From: Agapetus fuscipes
Taxonomy: Eukaryota > Arthropoda > Insecta > Trichoptera > Glossosomatidae
NCBI GenBank assembly: GCA_951799405.1
Contig: OX637353.1
Span: 2,790,001-2,854,000 of the forward strand
Direction of reading: 5' to 3'
DNA length: 64,000 nt
A program made the translations under genes and the position numbers. Positions 3,969 to 52,676 of this stretch are shown here, one piece after another. The notes under the pieces were generated by a model, which saw only the letters and a program-made list of their open reading frames with translations, did no database searches and was not told the DNA's origin. Position 1 is the stretch's first letter. Each line of letters begins with the position of its first letter.

Positions 3969-4141
3969 ATGACGTCGGTACAGCTTATTCGAAGATGATG
4001 AGAAAAACCTACAAATATTCAAACGGACAAAAATTTGATCAAAATAAATAAGCAATATCAAAATGTTACGTTACACAAGATGACAATTTTTAAAAATGTG
4101 ATTCAACATCATTTCAAAAGATTGGTTACAAAAAAAGAAAA

Positions 4142-5490
4142 ATGAATACCACAGAACAAATTTTCTTCTTGACTCAAGATCAATTAGACAATCCAATAGA
4201 AAGTGACCTGTATTACTCGCTCGATGAAGTCTCTGAAAACGATGGAAGAATTGCTCAGGAGCTTGCGTCAGTAACACTGGACTACGCATTCAACCTTCTG
4301 GAAACAGTTGTCACAAGTTTCGACAATCTTAGCAACTTGAACACCACCTTTCGTTTCAACACTTCAGTATCTGTAGAAGATCAATGGGAGAGATATATAG
4401 AACTGGTACAAAAGAGAGCTGCTTTGGTGGCATTTTTATTACTGTTTTCGTTGACAACTGTTTTTGGAAACATGCTAGTGATCATGGCGGTTATTCGAGA
4501 GAGGTATCTTCACACTGCCACGAATTACTTTGTCACCTCACTTGCGGTTGCAGATTGCCTGGTCGGATTGGTGGTCATGCCATTTTCAGCCATGTACGAG
4601 GTGCTAGAACACATGTGGTTTTTTGGGATGGGTTGGTGTGACGTCTGGAGATCTTTAGATGTGCTATTTAGCACAGCTTCAATCCTCAACCTTTGTGTAA
4701 TTTCTCTGGACAGATACTGGGCTATCACTGATCCAATTACATATCCAATGCGCATGAGCGGGAGAAGAGCAGCTTTTTTGATAGCTGCTGTTTGGGTGTG
4801 CTCTTCGACAATATCTTTCCCAGCAATCGCATGGTGGAGAGCTGTTAGAACAGAAGAAGTACCAGCGTTACAATGCCCATTCACAGAGCACTTAGGTTAC
4901 TTAATATTTTCATCGACCATATCATTTTATCTTCCACTATTTGTCATGGTCTTTACATATTACAAAATCTACAGAGCAGCAATGATTCAAACTAAGTCTT
5001 TAAAAATGGGCACAAAGCAAGTGATGAGACCGTCCGGGGAATTGGAGTTGACTTTGAGAATACACAGAGGTGGCACAACTAGAGAACGTCCAGGTACAAT
5101 CTACCACTCTAACACAGCAAACTCTACTCCCGAAGAGCATTCCGATTTGCATGAACCTCTGACAGCTCTTCAAAACAATGGGCTATCAAGGACTGCTTCA
5201 AATAGACTCATGAACACCACGCACACTAAACATTTACCGAAGAATTTTTCGCTGAGCAGGAAATTGGCGAAATTTGCCAAGGAGAAGAAAGCGGCAAAGA
5301 CATTAGGCATAGTGATGGGTGTGTTTATCGTGTGTTGGTTGCCTTTTTTTGTGGTGAATCTTTTGTCTGGGTTCTGCATGAAGTGCATCGCTCACGAGGA
5401 GTACGTCAACGTGATAGTGACTTGGCTGGGCTGGATCAACTCTTCTATGAATCCTGTTATATATGCTTGCTGGAGCAGAGACTTCAGAAG
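4142..5490 (+). CDS. Dop1R2: Dopamine receptor, insect Dop1R2/DAMB type (main exon)
   Basis: Class A amine GPCR; the family couples dopamine to cAMP and calcium signalling in insect neurons. Residues 1-90 form a glycosylation-rich N-terminus with NTT and NTS sequons. TM1 carries N110, TM2 D138, TM3 the amine-binding D173 followed by DRY (190-192), and C166 can pair with C245. TM5 has the catechol serines S257, S258 and S261; TM6 has CWLP (398-401) and FF; TM7 has NPVIY (437-441). The third cytoplasmic loop is long (about 280-385). The PITYPMRMSGRRAA and GELELTLRIHRG segments are what identify Dop1R2 rather than Dop1R1. The ATG at 4142 is the first in frame and sits in an A-rich context. The frame ends at residue RDFRR, where a donor (GT at 5491) interrupts codon 450 after its second base; reading on into the intron gives an immediate TGA. 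The C-terminal tail exon was not found in this window. Confidence 0.88.
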
Positions 5491-5496
5491 GTGAGT
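5491..5496 (+). other. Splice donor after TM7 of Dop1R2
   Basis: AAG|GTGAGT is a consensus donor, leaving a phase-2 intron. It lies just after NPVIY and RDFRR, at the start of the cytoplasmic tail, so only the tail should be missing from this exon. Confidence 0.8.
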
Positions 5497-20956: not shown

Positions 20957-21146
20957 TTTTGTCATGTATAAATTTTTAATTAAATAAATTATCCTCATAT
21001 ATATATATATATATATATACAAAAATTCAGTATCGTCAGGCTACAAATAATTCTAATACAGACTGTGTCCTAAGATTGTAACAGATGTGATGTGAAAGAA
21101 AGCGGAAAAGGGTCAAAGGGCTGAACCAGACAGGTAACTAATATAT
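20957..21146. repeat. LINE 3' terminus and (AT)n microsatellite
   Basis: TAATTAAATAAATTATCC ends the LINE, followed by about ten AT units at 20999-21019. The rest is flank of the gypsy element; the last six bases ATATAT (21141-21146) are repeated at 28379-28384 as its target duplication (4 or 6 bp). Confidence 0.7.
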
Positions 21147-21619
21147 TGTTACGAAATTAGGGTTCAATTGTCTTCAAATTAAAAATACACAGGTCTTCTT
21201 CAATAGTTATTTATTTTACACAGTTACAAAATTTATTTTCACACTACTTTCTCGATTATTCCATTGGTTTCGGTTCACTGATCAGATGGCTTCGATGTGT
21301 TTGTTAGTCGCTACGATACTGCCCCGCTCTGCAGGCCATTCGCACCTTTATACTCTTCAGAGCAGTATGATCCAGAACTAAAGTCGCCAGACGGTTCCAG
21401 AGTAATTATTACTTCTCGACGCTTCACGTACTACCTAGAGATACAACCAAAATCCTACCTACAAATGTAACACAGTATTCCTATAATTATAACAAATACC
21501 TACTTAGCCTAGAGAATTCTACACTTATACATAATTATCGATCTTACCTACCAATACTTTTGAGGATTCTTATAACTATAACTATCCATACTTATTTCAA
21601 TATTTATATTTACATAACA
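21147..21619 (-). repeat. 3' LTR of the gypsy element
   Basis: 473 bp, with ends TGTTACG and CATAACA in plus orientation. It looks identical to 27906-28378. The boundary is fixed by the repeat itself and by the adjoining polypurine tract. Confidence 0.95.
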
Positions 21620-21632
21620 CTACCCCCCCCCT
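21620..21632 (-). promoter_or_regulatory. Polypurine tract, overlapping the pol stop codon
   Basis: Minus strand reads AGGGGGGGGGTAG immediately before the LTR. This is the expected primer for plus-strand synthesis. Unusually it is also translated: it encodes the terminal glycines and the TAG of pol. Confidence 0.85.
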
Positions 21633-24600
21633 AGACTGTTTCGTCCCGGAACAGTCTTGACTCTGTGTAGGTAGGGGCATGCTGATCCACGTCGACACCC
21701 TGTGGTCAGGAAGAAGTGGCAGTCCACGGATTTCTCCCCACTGGCTCTCGGCTGCGCTTGCTCGCAGCACACCATGACGCTGATGCCGACTCCCGAGAAC
21801 ACTGCTTCAATCATACTCCGGATTATCCGCCAGTCTCGATTAGCGCGGCCGCCACCCATCTTCGGTATTGCCAGACGCGCCTGCTGATCCTCCAACATGT
21901 AGTCACGCAGCTCAACAAGGCCGTCCCACAATGCCTTGTAGTCCTCTTCCAGGTTGCTGGAATCCGGGACAACCAGGCAGTATGCTTGTTGACGCCCCTT
22001 CGGTAGTCTCAGAGCTCTTCCTTGCGGGCTGCTCGAGGGTTGCGGTTCTCCGAATTTGTATCGGAAGACCCGTGCAATTCCTCTAGACATATCTAGATCT
22101 TGCGGTACACTGCATGCCAGTGTGTGGTCCCTAGTGACCTCAAATAAGTCCTTGTGGACTTCTGTGGTCACTCCATGGCGAAACTTCTGCCCTGCCTTCG
22201 CGTTCTCCCAAAACGTCTCAAAGGCTGGTGATCTTTCGGATGCGACGCACTGTCGTACTTTTTGGGCTGGTTGGTCATCATTATCGCCTAGGTATGGTGA
22301 GAGGCGATTGTAGTGCACGACCCTTGGTTTTCCGTTTGGTCTCTTTTTTATGCGGTAGACCACATCGTTGATGCGCTCCAAGATCTCGTACGGCCCGTCC
22401 CAGGAACGCTGAAGTTTCGGACAGTATCCTTGGCGCCTCTTGGGGTCAAAAAGCCACACCCAGTCACCAGCTTTGTACCCCATGCTGTCAGCTCTGGTGT
22501 CATAGCGCTCCTTCATTTGATCGCTGGCTTCCCCGATGTTCATGCGGACCTGATCATGGATGTCATCCAGCCTCCTGCGAAGGTCTGTCACATAGTCTTC
22601 TCCGGCTAGGTCTTCACCTGGTTTGCAGCCAAATTTGAGATCACAAGGAAGTCGCATTTCTCGCCCAAACAGTATGCTGCTGGGAGTCTTCTTCGTCGTT
22701 TCCTGAACAGCCGACCGGTAAGCCAATAAGAACAAAGGCAGATGTCGGTCCCAGTCCCGCTGATGGCTGGACACTACTTTGGCTAAGTACCTCCCCACGG
22801 TACGGTTCATCCTTTCCACCATTCCATCAGACTGTGGATGTAGCGCAGTGGTCCTGGTCTTGTAGATCCCTAGCCGCTCACACATTTGCTGGAAGATAGC
22901 AGCTTCAAAGTTCCTTCCCTGATCAGAATGTAATTCCAGGGGTACGCCAAACCTGCTGATAAATTCGGTAACTAGAACTTCAGTCACGGTTACGGCCTCT
23001 TGGTTAGGGATTGAGTAAGCTTCCACCCACTTGCTGAAGTAATCCATCACCACCATGATGTACTTGTTACCCTTCTCAGTTGTAGGAAATGGGCCAGCTA
23101 TGTCGATGGCAATTCTTTCAAAGGGGCTGCCAACATTGTACTGACGCATTGGTGCTCGCCTTTTCCTTTGCGGTCCATTGGCCGTTGCACAGGTTACACA
23201 TTTTCGACACCAATCTTTGACGTCTTCGCTGCAGTTGATCCAGTAAAATCGCTCTTTCACTTTCTCCAGCGTCTTCTTAACGCCTAGATGTCCTCCAGAA
23301 GTTCCTCCATGCAGCAGTCCAAGGATTTCCGGTACTCGGCTCCTCGGAACGAGGGTTTGCTTTCTTCTAAGTGTGCCGTCTTCCTTCTCGATCTTTCGTT
23401 TCAGAAACCCTCCTTCTATCACTATGGATCCCCATTGAGCCCAATAAGCCTTGACAGTTGGTGATAAGGGGGCGAGTTTTTCCCAGGTTGGCCTTTCTCC
23501 TTCTCGCGCCCATTCCATCACATACTTCAAGTCCGGATCATTCAGTTGGTCTTGCGCCAATTTTTCATCTTGCCAGTCCTCATCTTCGGTGGTCGTCCTT
23601 TGGACAATTGCTACCTTGTCCTCCATCTTGCTGCAATGTTTGCAGTCACTGGCGCATGGTCGTCTGGATAATGCATCCGCATTTCGATGAAGCGTGCCAG
23701 GTCTATGTTCGGAGTCATAATCATACTCCTGGAGCCTTTCAATCCATCTAGCCACTTGCCCTTCTGGGTTTTTGAATTTCAGAAGCCAAACCAGTGCAGC
23801 ATGATCAGTCCGTAGTGTGAATTTTCTCCCGTACAAGTATTTGCGGAAGTGTTCCACTGATTTTATCACGGCAAGAAGCTCTCGTCTGGTCACGCAATAA
23901 TTTCGTTCTGGCTTGGAAAGCACTTTACTGAAGTAACCCAGAACAGTCTCATGCCCATCCTGTATTTGGGAAAGGACGCCTCCTATCCCCACATTACTAG
24001 CGTCGGTATCCAGGATGAACTTTCCATCTTTTTGTGGGTAGCTCAAGATGGGGGCACTTGTTAATCTTCCCTTAAGCTCTTCAAATGCTTGTGCGCAGGA
24101 ATCACTCCAATGGAAGCGAGTGTTTTCTTCCGTAAGCTTGGTGAGCGGTTTTGCAATGTCCGCAAATCTTGGCACAAACCTCCTGTAATAAGTGCACAGC
24201 CCCAGGAAACTCCTAGTTTCATGTTTGTCCTTCAGCACGGGCCAGTCTCTTACTGCCTTGATTTTGGCAGGGTCAACTTCAACTTCACGTTGAGAAACTA
24301 TGTGTCCCAGGTAATTTACTTGTTTCTTGAACAGGTTACACTTTTTCGGGTTGAGCTTCAGTCCAGCGTCTTGTAGTCGCCCGAAAACTTGCTCCAGATT
24401 TCTCAACTGATGGTTGAAGTCCTTTCCCAGGATGATTATGTCATCCAAGTATACCAGGCAGGTTTCCCATGATAGTCCTCGCAGCACATTCTCCATCAGC
24501 CTTTCAAACGTGGCGGGGGCATTGCATAAGCCAAATGGCATCACGGTGAACTGCCAAAGTCCAGATCCAGTCGAGAATGCAGTTTTCTCCTTATCTTTGG

Positions 24601-25882
24601 CATCCAATTCAACTTGCCAGTAGCCACTTTTCAGGTCCAATGTGGAAAAAATGGTGCATCCTGCCAATGTGTCCAAGGTGTCGTCAATCCTTGGCAGAGG
24701 GTAACTATCCTTTTTCGTAACATCGTTGAGCAGTCTGTAGTCCACACAAAATCTCGTGGTACCATCCTTCTTTTTCACCAGTACCACCGGGGATGTCCAA
24801 GGGCTACTTGATGGTTCTATGATGCCATCCTTGCTCATGTCTTTGATGATCTTGTCAGCTTCTTCCCGCTTTGCAAAGGGTAGTCTTCTTGGAGCCTGTT
24901 TTATTGGTCTCGCTTCTCCGGTGTCTATGCTATGTCGCACTACCTTGGTTCTTCCCAGACGGCCATTAGAGTCCTCGAAAATGTTCTGGTAGCGGCAGAT
25001 CAAACTCCTCACTCTCCGTTTGTTTTCCTCGGTTAGACCTTGGGAAGCGTCGTGGACCAGGGCTTCCAATTGTGTTGACAATTTGTTTCCTTCGCATGAC
25101 ATGTTTGTCATCTGTTGCACAATGGAAGTTATCCTCTCACATCTGCCCAAAACAAAACCTTCATTCATTTTAACTGGGTAGCTGTTCACATTCATGATCT
25201 TGACAGGAATGGTCTCCTTTGCGCGAATCACTGTTCTTGCCACCATGACTCCTTTGTTAACATTGTCCATGTTCTCCGGTTCTATCATACAGATTTGGTC
25301 ATGTGTACTACTGGAATCCAGGCGGGCACTCACTATCATCTCGGATCGCCCCTTCACTTCGGTATTCTTGGCTAGGATAACACGTGCAGCCAGTTCTTTC
25401 CGTCTTTGCAGGATGACTTCTTCATTTCCAATTTTAATGGACCCTTTCTTTAAATTTAAACTGCACCCAAATCTGTCCAGTATGTCCATTCCCAATATAA
25501 CGTCTTCTTCAATGTTGGCCACCAACGTCCGATGATCAAAAGTGGTGCTGCCAATTTGGAAGGTGGCAATCGTCTCCCCATACACCTGTGCTGACTCTCC
25601 CGTGGCGGTGTGCAGAGACCACTTTGTTGGTGCAATCTGCTTACCTCGTGCCACTATGTCGCGTCTCAGAATTGTCCTGGTTGCTCCCGTGTCCACCAGT
25701 AGTTCACGAGTTACTCCATCTATTATGCCATTGATAAAAATGCTGCTGGCTTTTCCTCTCACGGTTGCGACAGTAGCAGCAGATTTCAGGGCCTCTCCAG
25801 CGTGGGTCAACGGTTGCCCCTTCCCATTAACCCTTTCTAGTTTTCCGCAGCCTGTTTTCTGGGTTTCTGAGGCTTGGGACAC
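21620..25882 (-). CDS. Gypsy Pol with C-terminal macro-like domain and CCCH finger
   Basis: 1,420 codons counted from a GTG; upstream the frame closes at a TAG two codons earlier, so translation probably enters from gag by a -1 shift rather than at this codon. Protease has DTGA (64-67). Reverse transcriptase has LDLKSG (D416) and YLDD (478-481). RNase H has D627, E668 and D693. Integrase has an H858/H865/C895/C898 finger and D927, D987, E1023 with DD35E spacing, then WDGPY (1161-1165) of the GPY/F module. Gypsy pol usually ends soon after this. Here it continues: about 1240-1375 resembles a macro domain (GIARVFRYKFG, LRLPKGR, AYCLVV, a helix near EDYKALWDGL, AIPKMGGG, DWRIIRSMIEAVF, ISVMVC). 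C1388-X7-C1396-X5-C1402-X3-H1406 is a CCCH zinc finger. By eye it is nearest to TARG1/OARD1, but the catalytic Lys and Asp positions appear substituted, which favours ADP-ribose binding over hydrolysis. The macro call is by pattern, not by search. Confidence 0.85.
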   Translation of the reverse strand: MSQASETQKTGCGKLERVNGKGQPLTHAGEALKSAATVATVRGKASSIFINGIIDGVTRELLVDTGATRTILRRDIVARGKQIAPTKWSLHTATGESAQVYGETIATFQIGSTTFDHRTLVANIEEDVILGMDILDRFGCSLNLKKGSIKIGNEEVILQRRKELAARVILAKNTEVKGRSEMIVSARLDSSSTHDQICMIEPENMDNVNKGVMVARTVIRAKETIPVKIMNVNSYPVKMNEGFVLGRCERITSIVQQMTNMSCEGNKLSTQLEALVHDASQGLTEENKRRVRSLICRYQNIFEDSNGRLGRTKVVRHSIDTGEARPIKQAPRRLPFAKREEADKIIKDMSKDGIIEPSSSPWTSPVVLVKKKDGTTRFCVDYRLLNDVTKKDSYPLPRIDDTLDTLAGCTIFSTLDLKSGYWQVELDAKDKEKTAFSTGSGLWQFTVMPFGLCNAPATFERLMENVLRGLSWETCLVYLDDIIILGKDFNHQLRNLEQVFGRLQDAGLKLNPKKCNLFKKQVNYLGHIVSQREVEVDPAKIKAVRDWPVLKDKHETRSFLGLCTYYRRFVPRFADIAKPLTKLTEENTRFHWSDSCAQAFEELKGRLTSAPILSYPQKDGKFILDTDASNVGIGGVLSQIQDGHETVLGYFSKVLSKPERNYCVTRRELLAVIKSVEHFRKYLYGRKFTLRTDHAALVWLLKFKNPEGQVARWIERLQEYDYDSEHRPGTLHRNADALSRRPCASDCKHCSKMEDKVAIVQRTTTEDEDWQDEKLAQDQLNDPDLKYVMEWAREGERPTWEKLAPLSPTVKAYWAQWGSIVIEGGFLKRKIEKEDGTLRRKQTLVPRSRVPEILGLLHGGTSGGHLGVKKTLEKVKERFYWINCSEDVKDWCRKCVTCATANGPQRKRRAPMRQYNVGSPFERIAIDIAGPFPTTEKGNKYIMVVMDYFSKWVEAYSIPNQEAVTVTEVLVTEFISRFGVPLELHSDQGRNFEAAIFQQMCERLGIYKTRTTALHPQSDGMVERMNRTVGRYLAKVVSSHQRDWDRHLPLFLLAYRSAVQETTKKTPSSILFGREMRLPCDLKFGCKPGEDLAGEDYVTDLRRRLDDIHDQVRMNIGEASDQMKERYDTRADSMGYKAGDWVWLFDPKRRQGYCPKLQRSWDGPYEILERINDVVYRIKKRPNGKPRVVHYNRLSPYLGDNDDQPAQKVRQCVASERSPAFETFWENAKAGQKFRHGVTTEVHKDLFEVTRDHTLACSVPQDLDMSRGIARVFRYKFGEPQPSSSPQGRALRLPKGRQQAYCLVVPDSSNLEEDYKALWDGLVELRDYMLEDQQARLAIPKMGGGRANRDWRIIRSMIEAVFSGVGISVMVCCEQAQPRASGEKSVDCHFFLTTGCRRGSACPYLHRVKTVPGRNSLGGG
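21633..21657 (-). other. Stem-loop just upstream of the polypurine tract
   Basis: AGACTGTT and AACAGTCT form a perfect 8-bp stem around a nine-base loop, within the pol frame. It could shape the RNA near the polypurine tract; function unknown. Confidence 0.6.
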
Positions 25883-27231
25883 TTGGTGCTAAGGTGGCCC
25901 AGCTGTCCGCAGTTCCAGCAGCGTGGGTCTCGTCTTCGAGGTCTCAGACGTTCCAGCACTTTTTCAATTAGCTCCTCGGTTGTAGGTAGCTTGACCTCCT
26001 CTGCCTCGACTGCACGAACCCTGGCGTGGCCCCTGATGGACTGTTTGACAGCCTCAAACTCGAGAGCTTGGCTGAGCGCCTCGTTCAAAGCCTTGGGATG
26101 GGCCAGTTTTACGGCTTGTTGCGTCTCCCATTCCCGCAATCCATTTAGGAACTTGTCCACTGCCAAGCTCTCACAGATGTCGTCGGAGGCTGTCGGGTAA
26201 GCGTCTCGTACCAGGCGGGCGATGTCCATTTCAAACTCCTGGAGGCTCTCGTTGGGCTTCTGCACCCTTGTGTTCAGCTGCGACTTGTACAGCTGCTCCA
26301 GGCACTTGTGGCCATAGCGCATATCCAAGCGCTGCTTCAGCTGCCCAAAGTCACCACGGTTGTCCAGGGGTATGGCCTGCAGAACCCTGAGAGCGTCTCC
26401 TCGGAGCGACAGGCTGAGAACCGAAGCCTTCTTCTGCTGGCTCCAGGCTCCCATCATGGCAGCCGTTTCAAAGAGGGTCAAATACTCCTCCCACGACGTC
26501 TTCCCGTCGAAGGTCGGGAGGTTGTGCTTCGCCAGCGAAGGGTCATCATCCCCTCTAGTGACCCTGGTTGGAGTTGAGCATCCCTGGTCGGTCTCGTCGT
26601 GAAGGCCGTCTTTGGGGGATATTCTGGTGGACTCCATCTGGCCCTTGTCGGCCAGCTCGGCACGCAGACGGTCCTCCAGGCTTGATATACGAGTCTCCAT
26701 TTCCCCCTTCAGGGCTGTCATCTTCTCTTCCATTTCTCCTTTCAGGGTTGTGAGATTTCGGGACACCTTTTCCTCCAGATTCCTGGCGTTGTCAGCCATT
26801 TCCACCTTCAGGTCGGTCACCACTTCCTTCAGGTTGGTGGTCATCTTCTCCTCCAGCCCGGTCAGGTCCTCCTTCAGGGTCTTGGCGTTGTCAGCCATCT
26901 TCTCCTCCAGCCCGGTCAGGTCCTCCTTCACGGTCTTGGCGTTGTCAGCCATCTTCTCCTCCAGGGTCTTGGCGTTGTCAGCCATCTCCACTTTCAGCTT
27001 TTCCTCCATGGAAGTGAAGTTTCCGGTGATGCTGAGGTTTAGCTCGTCCAGGGCGCGGTCCCCTCCAGACGCCATGACAAAATATGCCGGGTCTTCGCCT
27101 GACTGTTCTAAGGCCTCCATGAGGCGTGCCTGTAAGGCCGCCTTCCCTCCTGAGGTCTCCAGGTCCCTCTCCAGAAGCTCATTTTTAAGCTCAGTGACTT
27201 TGAGGTCCTTGATGTTCACTTTGTTTGCCAT
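25837..27231 (-). CDS. Gypsy Gag with SAP motif, coiled coil and zinc knuckle
   Basis: 464 residues from the ATG at 27231 (an upstream TTG at 27240 is not needed). Residues about 8-42 resemble a SAP motif (LKVTELKNELLERDL...GGKAALQARL), normally a DNA/chromatin-binding helix pair. Residues about 60-205 form a long coiled coil built from near-identical repeats of EEKMADNAKT and KEDLTGLEEKM. A capsid-type domain follows (LPTFDGKTSWEEYLTLFE onwards, about 225-400). A CCHC knuckle lies at 438-451 (CWNCGQLGHLSTKC), expected to bind element RNA. The frame overlaps pol by about 50 bases in the -1 register. Confidence 0.9.
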   Translation of the reverse strand: MANKVNIKDLKVTELKNELLERDLETSGGKAALQARLMEALEQSGEDPAYFVMASGGDRALDELNLSITGNFTSMEEKLKVEMADNAKTLEEKMADNAKTVKEDLTGLEEKMADNAKTLKEDLTGLEEKMTTNLKEVVTDLKVEMADNARNLEEKVSRNLTTLKGEMEEKMTALKGEMETRISSLEDRLRAELADKGQMESTRISPKDGLHDETDQGCSTPTRVTRGDDDPSLAKHNLPTFDGKTSWEEYLTLFETAAMMGAWSQQKKASVLSLSLRGDALRVLQAIPLDNRGDFGQLKQRLDMRYGHKCLEQLYKSQLNTRVQKPNESLQEFEMDIARLVRDAYPTASDDICESLAVDKFLNGLREWETQQAVKLAHPKALNEALSQALEFEAVKQSIRGHARVRAVEAEEVKLPTTEELIEKVLERLRPRRRDPRCWNCGQLGHLSTKCPKPQKPRKQAAEN

Positions 27232-27886
27232 TTTTTTCAAAATTTACTTCAAAACAAAAATATTTTTAAATTTATTTAATACAAGTTTTGAGTTTTATAT
27301 ATATAGCTGTTTTGAATACGTACTTTAGCAAAATAATAATTTATCTGATTACACTGATTGGTAGGTACTGTCTTTTAATATTTATTTTTAATTCACCAAT
27401 ATTTTTAACATAATAATGTCTGATAGTACATAATTATTTATTTCGTCTCAAGTCTTTCAAACACACAGGTAGGTACTTAATGTACATTCACACACTTGTA
27501 AACAAAGGATAGTTATTCAAAAACTTTTTCTCGATGAATCTGGAACGTTCTTTTGTAATATTTTTCAAGATTTTTATTTATTATTTTTTTTTTTTTTTAA
27601 TCACACACAATAATAAAAAACTATGGTCCAATTTGATGACTTTCTCAATGCGGTAAAATAGTCATTATGTTATGTCCAGAATTATGTCCAGAATTATGTT
27701 CCATATGATGTTCCAGAATTTATAAGCAACTTGCTTTTGCGTCTTTTCTTTTAACAAAAATTTATTTAAACACTTGTTTTCACAAAAGTCAGTTCACACA
27801 AAGTTCAATTTGAATAAAGTTCATTTTAACACTATTTAATTTATTTTATTTATTTTTAGACAGAAGATCTTAATTTTTCTTGACAA
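27232..27886 (-). other. Gypsy 5' leader
   Basis: AT-rich untranslated leader between primer site and gag. It contains a short tandem repeat of TATGTCCAGAAT (about 27670-27700) and long T-runs. Presumed to hold packaging signals; none is recognisable. Confidence 0.6.
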
Positions 27887-27903
27887 TTCCGCACCTGACG
27901 CCA
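27887..27903 (-). promoter_or_regulatory. Primer binding site
   Basis: Minus strand TGGCGTCAGGTGCGGAA begins two bases after the 5' LTR. The leading TGG pairs with the CCA end of a tRNA, and the next base implies a G discriminator. That fits tRNA-Ser among others, but I cannot name the tRNA securely. Confidence 0.8.
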
Positions 27904-27905
27904 AT

Positions 27906-28378
27906 TGTTACGAAATTAGGGTTCAATTGTCTTCAAATTAAAAATACACAGGTCTTCTTCAATAGTTATTTATTTTACACAGTTACAAAATTTATTTTCA
28001 CACTACTTTCTCGATTATTCCATTGGTTTCGGTTCACTGATCAGATGGCTTCGATGTGTTTGTTAGTCGCTACGATACTGCCCCGCTCTGCAGGCCATTC
28101 GCACCTTTATACTCTTCAGAGCAGTATGATCCAGAACTAAAGTCGCCAGACGGTTCCAGAGTAATTATTACTTCTCGACGCTTCACGTACTACCTAGAGA
28201 TACAACCAAAATCCTACCTACAAATGTAACACAGTATTCCTATAATTATAACAAATACCTACTTAGCCTAGAGAATTCTACACTTATACATAATTATCGA
28301 TCTTACCTACCAATACTTTTGAGGATTCTTATAACTATAACTATCCATACTTATTTCAATATTTATATTTACATAACA
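27906..28378 (-). repeat. 5' LTR of the gypsy element
   Basis: 473 bp, matching 21147-21619 base for base on inspection. The U3 promoter is presumably here; I could not place a TATA box with confidence. Confidence 0.95.
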
Positions 28379-28384
28379 ATATAT

Positions 28385-35297: not shown

Positions 35298-35507
35298 GTG
35301 TAGACTATCACAATATACTGCTCTCAAAACCATGAAATCATTAATCATGATTTAATCCCTCCTAGACTTCTACATGTAGGACAACTATTCTTGCGTAACA
35401 CACCTGCTGCTACATAAGGTTGATAAAATATACCAGTAATGTACACAGATATAATCTAAGGTGCATTTCTTTTATTAATTTATGAGTTTTAAATAAAAGA
35501 TGGAAGA

Positions 35508-36437
35508 ATGACCGGTGAATTTGAAAGAATAATGAAAGGCAGGTGCGTACTGGGTGCTACTGCTAGCATCGCCAAGAACCAGAATCTTTCAAAAAATGTT
35601 CGACTGGCGGTGCACGGTGGTATACTAGTGCCCACTCTGATGTATGGAAGTGAAGCCTGGACGGTGAGTGAAAGTGAGATTAGTAAAGTCCATACAGTGG
35701 AAATGGACTACTTAAGAAGTATGATTGGAAAAAGACGGAGTGATAGGGTGAGGAATGATTTTGTTAGAGGGGATTGTGGTGTAAGAGAAAGTGTGAAAGT
35801 AAAGATTAAAAGAAGTTTACTTAGATGGTTTGGACATTTGGAGAGAATGGATGAGGAAAGACTGACGAAGAAAGTGTATGCTGCAAGAATTGATGGATGC
35901 CGTGGAAGAGGAAGACCGAGAAAGGTATGGATGGACCAAATTTTCGAAATAGCTAGTGAATGGGATATCAAGAGTCATAATAAAAGAAGAGCTTGTATGA
36001 AAAAGGTTATGACTCTGGATGAAATGAAAGAAGTATGCAAGGACAGGAAGAAGTGGCGGCTAATCTGCAATGCTGATTTGGAATGTTAGTTTATTAGTTT
36101 GCTACATTTTTTGCATAAGAATTTTTTTCATAAGGTTTTGTTGTTGTTTTTTTTTTTTTTTTATACTTTAATGTTATTTATTACTCGTATTCCTTGACTA
36201 GGTTGGTCTTAGGCTGACCACCCATACCGTAAAAAATGGTTCACTTTGCCAATGTCACCCCTGTTTCAGGGAATGTCGGCAAGAGTTGCAGGGCTTATGT
36301 TCATTTGAGGTTTGGATTTTATTTGTAAGTACACAATCAGCATTTGTAAGCGCGAACTACACGTGTTTGTTTGTGGGCATACATCTTAGAGCTTTGAATG
36401 AATATATCCTTGCTACTTAGATTATAGATAGATTATA
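35508..36437 (+). pseudogene. LINE-X 3' end with open C-terminal frame
   Basis: Frame 35508-36089 (193 residues) starts at MTGEFERIMKGRCVLGA and contains LVPTLMYGSEAWTV, RWFGHLERM and GRGRPRKVWMDQ. The catalytic reverse transcriptase part is absent, so it is 5'-truncated near 35490. The 3' UTR follows from 36090, with the CCTTGACTAGGTTGG block at about 36190 and a terminal CTTAGATTATAGATAG. Very similar to the copies at 41249 and 51876. Confidence 0.85.
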
Positions 36438-39400: not shown

Positions 39401-41248
39401 GACAGATCTATCCCCAACTGTTGCACGAGCTTACCCTTTCATTAATTAATACGTGTTTATGTCATATTGGTGTTAGTTTTGATAGAAACTATTTTTTTTT
39501 TCAATATAAAAATTGCGTATTCCTTCCGTTCGTTGGCCTTAGTTTTAAAGGTATGAAAACAAGGACACCACAATTTAGTACTACAAGCTTCTTTCCACAG
39601 TTTAAATATTAATATCATTATTTCCTTCTCATATAATGTGTCGGGTTATTTGAAGCCTAAAATTAATATACTTTGATGAGATTTTACCGTTCATTTACAC
39701 CGGCAGCCACAGCCAGATATTTTAATATCTCGCCGTGGCTGCTTGAACTTGTGGGAATGCTTGAACGAAAACATTGTCTTGAAATAATAATTCATCTGAT
39801 AAAGCATACAATACCGCCTTCCGTGTCGATACTTTGTACGTGACTTAAGTCGGGGTTGACAGAATGATAATTTATCACTTATTCCATATTAATTAACAAT
39901 CGTTGCAAGATAATTGAAAGGGGACGTATTTGAATATTTAAGGCGGAAATGTAAGGGCCGGTAGGAAGCACTTTTATGGCTTCGAGGTGGTTTGAACTGT
40001 AGGGGAGCTGTTTCGTGTTACCCAAGATAGAGATGAGTTACCTACTTTCTTTTAATAAGAGGTCGTTAACGTGCAGTGAATCTGACAGAACACATCAATA
40101 GAATTATATTGTTTACTTGAATCCATTTGTGGAACTGTAGAAGAAAAACGATGGATAGATGGCATTGTCAGCTGTTAGTAAATGTGACAAGAACTCATTT
40201 TGTGTTTTTGTACAAAGAATTATAATGATAAAATAATTATTTATACTTACATTATATATTATTACAAATATATTTTTAAAATCCTCGCGTTTTGATGTCA
40301 TGTCATACGCAGATCATGTATTTCGAATAAGAGTTTCTCAATTTTAAGCATTGTGAAATATGCAAAAGCCGTAAAACGGGCTAAATATACTGTTTAATAA
40401 TAAATTACTGTTTAATAATAAATTTATTGATAATGGTGATCATTTGTTTATCAACGCGACGATAGTGTTAAAACTTTACAAACGCAAATAAGCTCAGATT
40501 TTTTGTTGATTATTAAATTTCAGCTGATAATTTTGAAAGTAATTTCCTTTGTTTTCTCTGTGTATCTTAATATTAAGGCTCAAATAATTATGTTTTAAGA
40601 AAGGTGAAGATTGATATTCGTAGAGGTATAGTTGAGACTCTTGATAATGACCTGAATCTTGAAGGTCGAAAGTACTTGACGCAAATAAAATTATTGTGAA
40701 AATAAAACTACGTTTTGAAAAAAAAAAAAAAAAAAAAAAAAATATCATAGAGATGTTGCATTTTTTGATCTCAAGAAGGGTGCTGCGCCTAGAAGTTTAA
40801 GCGCCGCTTGCTTACAGGATTTCACGTCTGATGTTTTCCAATCTTATCACAGAGCAGGAAATGAATATCAATTTATTCCTGGGAGTAAATCTCTCCGCGT
40901 CACCACATAAATATTAAGTAATTCACGGAGGGAGACATCATCATGAATACATTACAATAACCAGCCTTGGCGCCTCCCCTATTGTGTAACACTTTTTTAA
41001 TAAACTTCTTAAGAGGAATGCAATTCTCCATTTCATTTTGTTCTCACCAGAAACGTCTTTAATTATCCATCGATTTTATTTTAAATAAATCTTAATAAAC
41101 AATTGCTAAAACGAATATTTTAACTAAAGGTAAAAATTATTGTTCGCTTTTTTATTTGTAGCATACTCCGTCATCATGACCGCTCGGTCATAGCATCGAC
41201 GATGCCAAACATTTTATACTTATCATCTTCTAAAGGCAGTGGCTTTTT
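36438..41248. other. Intergenic, nothing recognised except simple repeats
   Basis: Nearly 5 kb without a convincing gene. A 40-base hairpin lies at 39703-39742 and a run of 25 A at 40718-40742. A tRNA-like patch near 39345-39400 (GTCTAGCGGTCTACGTGC...GTGGATTCG) is too weak to call. The 78-codon frame at 36877-37113 has above-average GC but no recognisable domain. Confidence 0.35.
39703..39742. repeat. Short hairpin
   Basis: GCAGCCAC pairs with GTGGCTGC, and the inner GATATT...AATATC also pairs, giving a stem of about 17 bp with a few mismatches. No partner copies seen. Confidence 0.6.
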
Positions 41249-42367
41249 GTGTCAGCCATTTGTGTATGCAGGTCGCCATCTTTTGGAATAGCGGAAGACA
41301 TTCATGTTTTGAAAGCATACGGAGTGAACGGGGCTCTCCTAGGTGCGGTGCATGCAAACTATGAAAATAGTAAGGCATGTGTCCGTATTGATGGTGAGTA
41401 TAGTGAGTGGTTTGAAGTTTATAAGGGTGTGAGGCAAGGATGTGTGATGAGTCCATGGCTATTTAACATAGTCATGGACAAGTGTGTCAGAGATGCTCGA
41501 CTTAATGATTGTGGATTGATGATAGCAGAGAGCAAAGTGAGTGTTCTACTGTATGCAGATGATGCAGTTCTTGTATCTGATTCAGCAGTAGAATTGCAAA
41601 CAATGCTCTCTAGATTGAATGAAGCTTTGAAAGGTAACCATTTGAAGTTGAATGCAAGTAAGACGAAAGTATTGATTTTTGAAAGAGATGATGAAAGTAT
41701 GAATTATGAATTTAAAATTAATGGAATGAATGTTGATGTCGTAAATGAGTTTGTATACCTGGGAAGTAAGTTTGAAAAAGATGGAAGAATGACCGGTGAA
41801 TTTGAAAGAAGAATAATGAAAGGCAGGTGCGTACTGGGTGCTACCGCTAGCATCGCCAGGAACCAGAATCTCTCAAAAAATGTTAGATTGGCGGTGCACA
41901 GTGGTATACTAGTGCCAACCTTGATGTATGGAAGTGAAGCCTGGACGGTGAGTGAAAGGGAAATTAGTAAAGTCCATACAGTAGAAATGGACTATCTAAG
42001 AAGTATGATTGGGAAAAAACGAAGTGACAGAGTGAGGAATGATTTTGTAAGAGAAGAATGTGGTGTAAGGGAAAGTGTGAAAGTGAAGATTAAAAGAAGT
42101 ATGTTAAGATGGTTCGGGCATATGGAGAGAATGAGTGATGAAAGATTGACGAAGAAAGTATATGTTGCTAAAATAGATGGATGTCGTGGTAGAGGAAGAC
42201 CGAGAAAAGCATGGATGGATCAAATTTCTGAAATAGCGAATGAATGGGATATCCAGAGTCATAATAAAAGGAGGACTTGCATGAAAAAGGTTATGACTCT
42301 GGATGAAATGAAAGAAGTGTGCAAGGACAGGAAGAAGTGGCGGCTAATCTGCAATGGTGATTTTTAA
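41249..42367 (+). pseudogene. LINE-X reverse transcriptase, longest copy (5'-truncated)
   Basis: 372-residue open frame (begins at a non-ATG codon; LINE similarity starts about 41285). GVRQGCVMSPWLFN is reverse transcriptase motif B, LLYADDAVLV the catalytic YADD motif (about residues 107-116), and KLNASKTKVLIF and VYLGSKF follow. The C-terminal part has YGSEAWTV, RWFGHMERM and GRGRPRKAWMDQ. Motif A and the endonuclease are missing, so the copy cannot move itself, although its remaining frame is intact. Organisation resembles RTE-type LINEs, but I do not assign a clade. Confidence 0.85.
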
Positions 42368-50212: not shown

Positions 50213-51875
50213 GAACAAACACTCTCAATCGTGTAGGTAGAACAAAAATGTATGAAGGTTAATCTAGGGGTGCTGTTTCATCTTCCATACATCTTCTATT
50301 GATGCAATCAAATGAAGTTTTCCCAATGTTTTATTCTGGGGGTACTCTAAAAGTTAAATTATATTATTGTTACTCTATTGAGACTGAAAAACTTCCGAGT
50401 TTCTTATAACATTCTACAGTTGAAAATTTGAGAAAAAAGACATCGAGAAGCAAAGTGTTCATCATGTTATTTAAACAATAAACGTACATGATATGTGTCT
50501 TCGCCATCATTTAAAATAAGAAAAAATCATGACATGTTCTTTAGATCTAAACCGATAACATGAATTGTTCGTGTATTCTGTGACTTTCCTTCAAATATTG
50601 ATTTATTTAACAAGCGTTTTTCTGCTCCCCAAGGGATACTCAGATTGGTAATCCTTAATCTTTCAGTGCAAACAAATTTCAATTTTGTCAATCATTTCAA
50701 TCATATTTACAACACTTTATTGACTGTGAAAAACAGTTTATAGGTTGCACAGAGCAAGCGAAATTTTTGTAGAGGGTAAAGATAATGTAGGATTCTAAAG
50801 TTACGGCTTGTATTCAACATCTCTAACTTCACATCCCTTACAGGTTCTAATATTAACGATGCATGTTTGTATTTGAGTCTATGGAGTTGACACTAAAACA
50901 ACAACCATAAATGACACTACTTGTTACACGCAATTTGTTCTATGCAAATGCAATACTTCAAAAAAACCCTTTGCTATCATTAAAAAATAAACCTTTTGCT
51001 ATCAAGTTCCGGAACTACATACTAATTGTTTAAAGATGGAATACTCAATACATGAAAAACATTTTTCCCTGTACCGGGTTGGGTTGCCACTCCGATTCCA
51101 GGAGAAAGAGATAAACGGCAAGAGTTGCAAAGCTTATGCCCTTTTGAAGTGTTGGTCTCCTTTGTAAGTACGCACTTCCACTACACACAATGCTGATGAG
51201 TGATAGGACACGCACAAAAACTGAAAGAATGATCTTTGATTTCTAGCTACCTCACTATCACTCTAAAAAAATATTTAGCTACGTATATATTCCAAGAAAC
51301 GAAGCCAGTAACTAAAATTTACAGTATTAATAATGGCATGTTACTGTGTAGGCTACGAAATGAACTCCTACGATTTTATCGTCATCCACTTTGAACAGGC
51401 TTTGCATACATCTTGTCTCATCACCTTTTTCTTTCACTTAGGTAGGAGTACAGAAGCATAGGTGACTTTAATTGACTTGACCACAAGACTTGGCATAACT
51501 TTTATCTTAATATTTGAATACAGTTGATGTGAGTAAATGTTCAGAGCTTATAGTAAACTTATCTTGGAGTAGGTAGGTGTAAAACCACCGTCACCATTGG
51601 CATCGGTATCGGCTTGAGGTTTAATAAGAGCGGCTGTGTTCTAGATTTATCGAACGCTTTCCTTAAGCTGAAACAACTAGCGATATTACAATATTCAGAT
51701 TTCAATTATTGTAGAAGCATTCACCTTGTAATCTTTGTAGGTAAAGATTGAGATTTAGAGTGGTTGATTCATACAACATTTAATTGAAATTTAGTCAGTA
51801 TTTCAAGATCATCAAGCCAAACATGTTTCTTTCCATCATGTAAACCTTTTTTGTTCGTGTTTTTTTTTACTTCAT
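50213..51875. other. Intergenic; short LINE-X tail piece at about 51105-51195
   Basis: GGCAAGAGTTGCAAAGCTTATG followed by TTTGTAAGTACGCACTTCC matches the middle of the LINE-X 3' UTR on the plus strand. Nothing else is recognised. Confidence 0.45.
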
Positions 51876-52676
51876 TTGGAAGCGAGGCCTGGACGGTGAA
51901 TGAAAGTGAAATTAGTAAAGTCCATACTGTTGAAATGGACTTTCTAAGAAGTATGATTGGGAAAAAACGGAGTGACAGGGTGAGGAATGATTTTGTAAGA
52001 GAAGAATGTGGTGCAAGAGAAAGTGTGAAAGTGAAGATTAAAAGAAGTTTGTTAAGATGGTTTGGGCATATGGAGAGAATGAATGAGGAAAGACTGACGA
52101 AGAAAGTATATGTTGGTAGAATAGATGGATGTCGTGGTAGAGGAAGACCGAGAAAGGTATGGATGGACCAAATATCCGAAATTGCGAATGAATGGAATAT
52201 CCAGAGTCATAATAAAAGAAGAGCTTGTATGAAGAAGGTTATGACTCTGGAGGAAATGAAAGAAGTATGTAAGGATAGAAAGAAATGGCGGTTGATCTGT
52301 GATGTTGGCGGCTGAGGTTTGTTAAAGTAAAATTTGGTTTTATGATTTAGTTTTTATGTCCATGTATATATTGTGATTTATTGTTTTTAAAAAATGTAAT
52401 TTGTCATGTATGTTCCTTGACTTATAGGTTGTTATGCGGCTGACCACCCATAATGTCAAAATTGGTTCACTTTGCCAATGTCACCTCTGTTTCAGGGAAG
52501 GACGGCAAGAGTTGCAAGGCTTATGTTCATTTGAGATTGGGTTTTTATATTGTAGGTCCACATGCGGCATGTGTTAGCGCGAAATTATACATATCTGCTT
52601 GTGGGAATGCATTTAATATAAAACTTAAATGATATATATCTTTGCAGCTTAGATTAGATTAGATTAGATTAGATTT
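51876..52676 (+). pseudogene. LINE-X 3' end with open C-terminal frame
   Basis: From GSEAWTVNESEISKVHTVEM to KKWRLICDVGG (stop at 52315), with RWFGHMERM and GRGRPRKVWMDQ. 5'-truncated at about 51876. The 3' UTR includes CCTTGACTTATAGGTTG and ends in five TTAGA units (52649-52676). The frame is intact but lacks all catalytic motifs. Confidence 0.85.

What the first reader, a model, noticed from the sequence alone, without database searches (positions are those of the whole stretch)
21665..22165. Gypsy Pol carries a macro-like domain plus CCCH zinc finger after integrase
Seen: after the GPY/F module the pol frame continues about 220 residues, all open. Residues about 1240-1375 keep macro-domain landmarks in order (RGIARVFRYKFG, YCLVV, IPKMGGG, W...MIEAVF, ISVMVC), and C1388/C1396/C1402/H1406 form a CX7CX5CX3H finger. 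Known: macro domains bind or hydrolyse ADP-ribose; CCCH fingers bind RNA. Inferred: an LTR element has captured a TARG1-like gene and may use it against, or to exploit, host ADP-ribosylation (as some RNA viruses do with macro domains), with the finger recruiting element RNA. I do not know whether this fusion has been reported.
Basis: partly seen in the sequence, partly recalled or inferred. Interest (0 to 1): 0.92.

Follow-up and report, generated by a model that had tools for sequence, protein, structure and literature searches.

The report
Gypsy transposon with captured macrodomain module
A gypsy jumping gene with identical end repeats carries, after its integrase, a domain related to the human ADP-ribose enzyme TARG1 in which both catalytic residues are replaced, followed by a zinc finger, and a shorter relative that matches at 150 or more places in the same genome joins this module to its Gag protein instead; the module likely reads ADP-ribose marks and would bind RNA rather than cut the marks, which would be a new way for a transposon to use a host signalling system.

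The parts
21147..21619 (-). 3' LTR, 473 bp, TGTTAC...ATAACA
   Evidence: 0 mismatches to the 5' LTR
27906..28378 (-). 5' LTR, 473 bp
21143..21146 (.). target-site duplication ATAT (copy beside the 3' LTR)
28379..28382 (.). target-site duplication ATAT (copy beside the 5' LTR)
27889..27903 (-). probable primer-binding site TGGCGTCAGGTGCGG, two bases after the 5' LTR
   Evidence: position and TGG start only
25837..27240 (-). Gag ORF: SAP domain, coiled-coil repeats, capsid, CCHC knuckle
27106..27213 (-). SAP domain of Gag (PF02037)
   Evidence: E 3e-8
21620..25882 (-). Pol ORF, 1420 aa, in another frame than Gag with a short overlap
25472..25735 (-). aspartic protease
24296..24778 (-). reverse transcriptase
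23723..24109 (-). RNase H
22850..23350 (-). integrase zinc-binding and core domains
22292..22468 (-). integrase C-terminal domain (p58_C / SH3_Tf2-1, GPY/F-type)
22160..22291 (-). linker; in pol-less locus L029 homology resumes at 22282
21767..22159 (-). TARG1-type macrodomain, Pol residues about 1242-1372; Lys84 and Asp125 equivalents replaced
21665..21721 (-). CCCH finger CX7CX5CX3H, C1388 to H1406
21623..21631 (-). run of nine G just before the stop codon, probable polypurine tract inside the coding sequence; the stop codon (21620-21622) touches the 3' LTR

Best explanation
The tail of this Ty3/gypsy Pol is a TARG1-family macrodomain that has lost the catalytic lysine and aspartate, followed by a CCCH finger, and it likely works as a particle-tethered, non-hydrolysing ADP-ribose reader with a predicted RNA-binding finger. 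Shown: the homology, the replaced dyad, the kept adenine and pyrophosphate contact residues, low dN/dS after the loss, and the same module fused to Gag in a pol-less family. Inferred: that the pocket still holds ADP-ribose or a similar adenine nucleotide, that the finger holds RNA, and that the module enters the particle by being covalently part of Gag-Pol (window family) or Gag (pol-less family). The mechanism I commit to: the module would dock Gag/Pol particles and their RNA or cDNA on host sites marked by PARP enzymes, most likely chromatin (Gag also carries a SAP domain, a DNA-binding type), holding or shielding the mark instead of erasing it. It probably arose from an active hydrolase.
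For: Homology and fold. Catalytic Lys and Asp are kept in 53 of 56 aligned macrodomains (52 search hits, human TARG1 and 3 own families) and lost only in the window family A and families B and C of its genome. The contacts D20, L21, F22, I44, P118, G121 and G123 are kept in the window copy (L47 is Val), while H32, T83, K84 and D125 of the distal-ribose side are changed (roles from section 5 of PMC6397177). Macrodomain dN/dS between A and C is 0.177 (51 synonymous, 48 nonsynonymous differences), with 0.085 for the integrase C-terminus. Shift of function: at like integrase identity (mean 73 against 74%) the window macrodomain is 35-43% identical to 10 relatives, while those ten are 49-69% identical to each other (45 pairs). 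Gag link: 150 scored matches to the Gag-macro junction among 948 candidates, 126 of 150 with open frames of 700 aa or more. In 7 of 7 such loci fetched for this, Gag, macro-CCCH and LTR sequence (only its start in L070) are present and nothing from protease to integrase matches; in L029 homology to Pol resumes at 22282, just after the integrase. Precedent: chikungunya macrodomain mutants without hydrolysis still bind ADP-ribose (PMC12632316, abstract); loss of activity recurs in viral and host macrodomains (PMC10221186, abstract).
Against: No binding, expression or localisation data. Two distal-ribose positions besides the dyad are changed (H32 to Cys, T83 to Val), so the ligand could be something else, such as adenine of RNA; contacts Y150 and L152 were not mapped. 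Pfam Macro misses the copy. Family C was read at one locus only (L021), so the A-C dN/dS rests on one copy; it is a simple Nei-Gojobori count with high dS. Seven recent pol-less copies differ from the window tail by only 1-3 synonymous sites, so selection on them is barely measurable; three older ones give pN/pS 0.19-0.28. Chromatin as the docking site rests on the SAP domain and on analogy. In mosquito cells the chikungunya mutants replicated normally (PMC12632316, abstract), so a reader need not matter in insects.
Confidence: 0.48

Rival explanations
1. Integrase tether: the module reads a mark on chromatin and steers integration, as the chromodomain of chromoviruses is believed to do at the end of integrase.
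For: Directly after the integrase C-terminal domain; chromodomains in gypsy integrases are believed to help contact with chromatin (PMC5408687, passages).
Against: The pol-less family keeps the module on Gag without any integrase; an integrase supplied in trans would already carry the tether. No insertion-site preference was tested.
Confidence: 0.2
2. Eraser: the macrodomain removes ADP-ribose placed by host PARPs on element proteins or RNA, as viral macrodomains do.
For: 17 of 17 relatives with the C-terminal arrangement outside this genome keep Lys and Asp; family D in the same genome keeps both.
Against: In families A, B and C Lys84 is Pro, Arg and Pro, and Asp125 is Ala in all three; the TARG1 pattern TKx(30,35)Px[IL]GxGxD is not met.
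Confidence: 0.1
3. Nucleic-acid packaging module: the finger and a remodelled pocket bind element RNA (for instance adenine-rich stretches) and help Gag select it; ADP-ribose plays no part.
For: A second zinc finger beyond the CCHC knuckle, present in 14 of 20 elements with the C-terminal arrangement; distal-ribose residues lost; retention in a Gag-only family.
Against: Adenine and pyrophosphate contacts are kept; 6 of 20 such elements show no finger but have the macrodomain, one of them (P0013) ending 17 residues after it.
Confidence: 0.17
4. Passive passenger: a captured gene fragment with no function, in decay.
For: Loss of the catalytic dyad and fast change in this lineage.
Against: 108 of 134 scored copies keep a frame of 1400 aa or more, and 95 of 115 in a search that did not use the tail; dN/dS 0.177; finger cysteines and histidine kept in families A, B and C; retained in the pol-less family.
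Confidence: 0.05

Closest known systems
Human TARG1/OARD1 (C6orf130), TARG1-like subclass of ALC1-type macrodomains
   Same: Sequence homology (E 1.4e-10), same predicted fold, adenine and pyrophosphate contacts
   Different: Lys84 and Asp125 replaced; fused to integrase and followed by a CCCH finger; TARG1 pattern not met
Fish endogenous retroviruses with macro-domain ORFs (Basta et al. 2009, seen only as cited in one passage of PMC4977317)
   Same: An LTR retroelement that gained a macrodomain gene
   Different: Retroviruses with an additional open reading frame; here a Ty3/gypsy element with the domain fused to Pol or Gag and a lost dyad. The fish sequences were not compared.
Chromoviruses (gypsy elements with a chromodomain in the integrase C-terminal domain)
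   Same: A host-type domain at the end of integrase, next to the GPY/F-type domain
   Different: Macrodomain and CCCH, no chromodomain hit; also found on Gag without integrase
Alphavirus macrodomains
   Same: Macro fold in an RNA-based element; loss of hydrolysis recurs there (PMC10221186, abstract)
   Different: Another macrodomain subclass, 12-19% identity in the fold matches
Gag-only non-autonomous LTR elements (plant examples such as TR-GAG, recalled)
   Same: Gag kept, pol deleted, presumably mobilised in trans
   Different: Gag is extended by a coiled coil plus macro and CCCH

Membership tests
TARG1-like macrodomain | Macro fold and sequence homology to TARG1 | tested here: met
TARG1-like macrodomain | Pattern TKx(30,35)Px[IL]GxGxD (PMC6397177, section 5) | tested here: not met
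   also False for families B and C and for 7 element rows with Lys and Asp (P0008, P0010-P0013, P0015, P0038) that miss the pattern for other reasons
TARG1-like macrodomain | Catalytic Lys84 and Asp125 | tested here: not met
   Pro and Ala; 53 of 56 rows keep both
TARG1-like macrodomain | ADP-ribose binding and hydrolysis | not testable with these tools
   needs purified protein
Ty3/gypsy LTR retrotransposon | LTRs with short target-site duplication; order PR-RT-RNase H-IN; Gag with knuckle | tested here: met
Chromovirus | Chromodomain at the end of integrase | tested here: not met
   no chromodomain among Pfam matches up to E 10 (HMMER filters drop most matches above about 0.1)
CCCH zinc finger (PF00642) | Curated Pfam score | tested here: inconclusive
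   21.8 bits on one piece, 20.0 on the other, cut-off 20.5; spacing CX7CX5CX3H is exact
Fish ERV with macro ORF | Retrovirus with an additional macro-domain ORF | tested here: not met
   the domain is in the Pol frame of a gypsy element; the fish sequences themselves were not compared

The most novel reading that the evidence does not exclude
A gypsy lineage turned a captured ADP-ribose hydrolase into a non-catalytic reader, linked it to an RNA-binding finger, and made it a portable particle module that a pol-less family keeps on Gag while dropping every enzyme. Together with separate captures of TARG1-like domains before protease, between RNase H and integrase, and after integrase, this makes ADP-ribosylation a general front between animals and their LTR retrotransposons, fought by reading marks as well as erasing them.
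Probability: 0.35. Interest if true: 0.9.

Novelty: new variant of a known kind. Interest (0 to 1): 0.78.

Why it matters
Macrodomains are studied as weapons of RNA viruses against host PARPs. TARG1-type macrodomains at three places of gypsy polyproteins, in a family that jumped very recently, would extend that contest to transposons. One genome holds versions with the catalytic dyad (family D) and without it (families A, B, C and the Gag form), a natural comparison of eraser against reader. The Gag-macro-CCCH family shows which part of Pol a parasite of the element keeps, which makes the module's function open to biochemistry now.

Tried and rejected
Chance resemblance: rejected by reversed and shuffled controls and by independent relatives. 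Catalytic eraser for this copy: demoted after the residue census. One-off fusion or assembly error: rejected by 134 scored own-genome copies, the integrase-based search and relatives from other species. One single capture for all element macrodomains: not rejected by the macro tree (p-AU 0.222). In the integrase tree (P0010, P0015 and OWN_B dropped as too short, P0011, P0012 and family C not entered) P0045, with an internal macrodomain, is the nearest neighbour of the C-terminal group, so the domain may have moved once within that lineage; P0038, P0040, P0043, P0047, P0054 and family D lie far off, which is why I favour several captures. The C-terminal clade has support 96/72, below the double threshold, and 99/92 for its 20 rows. 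Close relatives in bacterial or archaeal contigs: none (a scan by peptide patterns, 15 stretches matched, none confirmed). Host species: not identified; a telomere-repeat search did not complete. Two of ten LTR pairs gave only partial matches, with an end cut by my window choice, and were not used. Older pol-less locus L045 was dropped from the pN/pS count for its length, L046 not entered. Literature: (listings only; 15 of 226 shown) gave nothing on a macrodomain in gypsy Pol; Basta 2009 itself was not read.

Full report
What is there. A complete Ty3/gypsy element lies on the minus strand: two 473-bp LTRs without a mismatch, an ATAT target-site duplication, a probable primer site starting TGG, a Gag ORF with a SAP domain, coiled-coil repeats, capsid and CCHC knuckle, and a 1420-residue Pol ORF with protease, reverse transcriptase, RNase H, integrase and the integrase C-terminal domain. 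Pol does not end there. About 220 more residues run up to the 3' LTR: the stop codon touches the LTR and a run of nine G inside the last codons is the probable polypurine tract.

It is a family. A search with the relative P0003 found 52 proteins at E<=10, P0003 included. By my reading of their Pfam columns and macro positions, 17 are gypsy Pol proteins or fragments with the macrodomain after the integrase C-terminus (P0003-P0013, P0015-P0019, P0022), from the beetles Aromia and Callosobruchus, from contigs labelled Erysiphe pulchra and from unnamed sources; 6 are elements with it elsewhere or without a p58 domain before it (P0038, P0040, P0043, P0045, P0047, P0054); 28 look like cellular proteins, nearly all from named insects, and one is Banna virus VP5. 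With families A, B and C of this genome there are 20 elements with the C-terminal arrangement; 14 of the 20 have the CCCH finger. In the macro tree these form one group (99/92, with P0011 and P0012 left out and three rows added: 96/72). In the integrase tree they also group (83/93; 14 rows); P0045 is the nearest outsider and the other elements lie far off.

The active site is gone here. Section 5 of PMC6397177 assigns Lys84 as nucleophile and Asp125 as the residue that resolves the intermediate. In 56 aligned macrodomains 53 keep Lys and 53 keep Asp; the three exceptions are the families of this genome, A (Pro, Ala), B (Arg, Ala) and C (Pro, Ala). The contacts D20, L21, F22, I44, P118, G121 and G123 are kept in the window copy; C has Glu at D20, B has Val at I44, and L47, which varies widely in relatives, is Val in A. 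H32 is Cys in A and B (a gap in C), and T83 is Val in A and C but Thr in B. Human S35 is Ala in all 45 comparison rows and Pro in the window. The domain is therefore likely a binder that does not hydrolyse; binding is not tested.

Change of function, then conservation. Window against ten of the 17 relatives (near-copies and fragments left out): integrase 68-76% identical, macrodomain 35-43%. The same ten among themselves (45 pairs): integrase 69-93%, macrodomain 49-69%. Like integrase distance, non-overlapping macrodomain identity: the macrodomain sped up in this lineage. Since the split of A and C (C read at one locus, L021) it is constrained: dN/dS 0.177 over 134 codons, against 0.085 in the integrase C-terminus. 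The A and C finger regions are nearly identical (dS 0.155 where the macrodomain has 0.98), which suggests template switching.

Copies and age. 134 copies of the tail were scored out of 1458 candidates; all are 100% identical to the query as rounded in the table, and 108 of 134 have an open frame of 1400 aa or more. A search with integrase alone scored 115 of 2403 candidates, 95 with frames of 1400 aa or more; none of the other 20 has the ~1200 aa that an end after the GPY/F module would give. Of ten further LTR pairs, eight could be compared: 0-2 mismatches each, four of them with 14-23 unmatched columns; 4-bp duplications are visible in four pairs. The family has jumped very recently. Family B: 48 of the 150 rows scored have 45-47% identity to the P0003 query; 10 of 10 fetched are of this type.

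A Gag version without Pol. Some copies had a coiled coil before the macro linker instead of integrase. Reading outward showed Gag, CCHC knuckle, coiled coil, macrodomain and CCCH in one frame (whole frames). In L029, homology to the window element covers Gag, stops, and resumes at 22282, just after the integrase C-terminal domain; the coiled coil has no match in the window. Searching the junction gave 150 scored matches of 948 candidates, 126 of the 150 with frames of 700 aa or more. Seven of seven loci fetched for this contain Gag, macro-CCCH and LTR sequence (only its start in L070) and no match to the segment from protease to integrase. Three older copies give pN/pS 0.19-0.28 against the window tail; seven recent ones differ by too few sites to say. 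A non-autonomous element that drops all enzymes but keeps this module argues that the module serves Gag, the particle or the RNA, and not only integrase.

Other versions in the same genome. Three loci look like exons of the host's own TARG1, with Lys and Asp intact. Family D (8 rows, and a shorter ninth, of the 150 scored; five loci read) carries a macrodomain after RNase H with Lys and Asp intact; in four of the five the integrase follows in the same frame, in the short one it was not in view. One origin for all element macrodomains is not rejected by the macro tree alone (p-AU 0.222), but positions and integrase distances favour several captures.

How it most likely works. Common to the autonomous and the Gag-only family is that the module is made as part of a particle protein. 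I therefore think it rides in the particle, where the macrodomain would hold ADP-ribose marks on host sites and the finger would hold RNA. Reader use has precedent: chikungunya macrodomain mutants lose hydrolysis and keep binding, and the authors see binding as what is selected, though replication in mosquito cells was unaffected (PMC12632316, abstract); activity is lost repeatedly in viral and host macrodomains (PMC10221186, abstract). PARP-1 may matter to gypsy elements: in fly parp-1 mutants springer rises strongly and nine further gypsy-superfamily elements tend to rise without passing the study's FDR, possibly indirectly (PMC7712786, passages). Where docking happens is open; chromatin is my choice because Gag has a SAP domain and Pol hangs the module on integrase, where chromoviruses carry a chromodomain (PMC5408687, passages).

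Known or new. Macro-domain ORFs have been reported in fish endogenous retroviruses (one passage of PMC4977317, citing Basta 2009, which I did not read). Six searches listed nothing about a macrodomain in a gypsy Pol; the library lacks most subscription papers. Accessory domains in retroelements are a known kind; this domain, its inactivation and its Gag form make it a new variant.

Noticed in passing
L035-L038, L041 (G000:C21:11273800, C12:10912553, C30:6582391, C1:26556788, C143:48800): Family D: gypsy elements with a macrodomain between RNase H and integrase, Lys and Asp intact (ITKQN, GCGLD or GSGLD). L038 is shorter and its integrase was not in view.
   Followed up: partly
L029-L031, L045, L046, L067-L073: Pol-less family with Gag, coiled coil, macrodomain and CCCH in one frame; the coiled coil resembles a generic myosin-tail profile (E 9.4e-10, 37.5 bits, just under the cut-off of 38.1) and its origin is unknown.
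   Followed up: yes
window 27106-27213: SAP domain at the N-terminus of Gag (PF02037, E 3e-8); the precomputed domains also list it for Aromia relatives P0011 and P0012.
   Followed up: no
P0053; BFVD A0A8E0KJF2: Banna virus VP5 is found by the P0003 macro query and Kadipiro virus VP8 is the best viral fold match; P0053 groups with a mayfly protein in the macro tree (98/85).
   Followed up: no
P0014, P0020, P0021, P0023: Cellular proteins of Asbolus, Tribolium (two species) and Tenebrio have four TARG1-like macrodomains each.
   Followed up: no
P0003, P0016: Two macro-carrying gypsy proteins are labelled Erysiphe pulchra (a fungus) but nest among elements of insects and unnamed sources; contaminating animal DNA is likely, not tested.
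   Followed up: no
L021 against window 21620-21760: Family C has a finger region almost identical to family A while the rest is diverged, a sign of template switching at the 3' end.
   Followed up: partly
L032-L034: Three near-identical exons of a host TARG1-like gene with intact Lys and Asp, two on one contig.
   Followed up: partly
window 4094-5494: An open frame of 466 codons that reads as an amine (dopamine-type) receptor; identification from recall only.
   Followed up: no
window 41234-42367, 35493-36089, 51788-52315: Similar reverse-transcriptase-like open frames in three places, probably a LINE; class named from recall.
   Followed up: no
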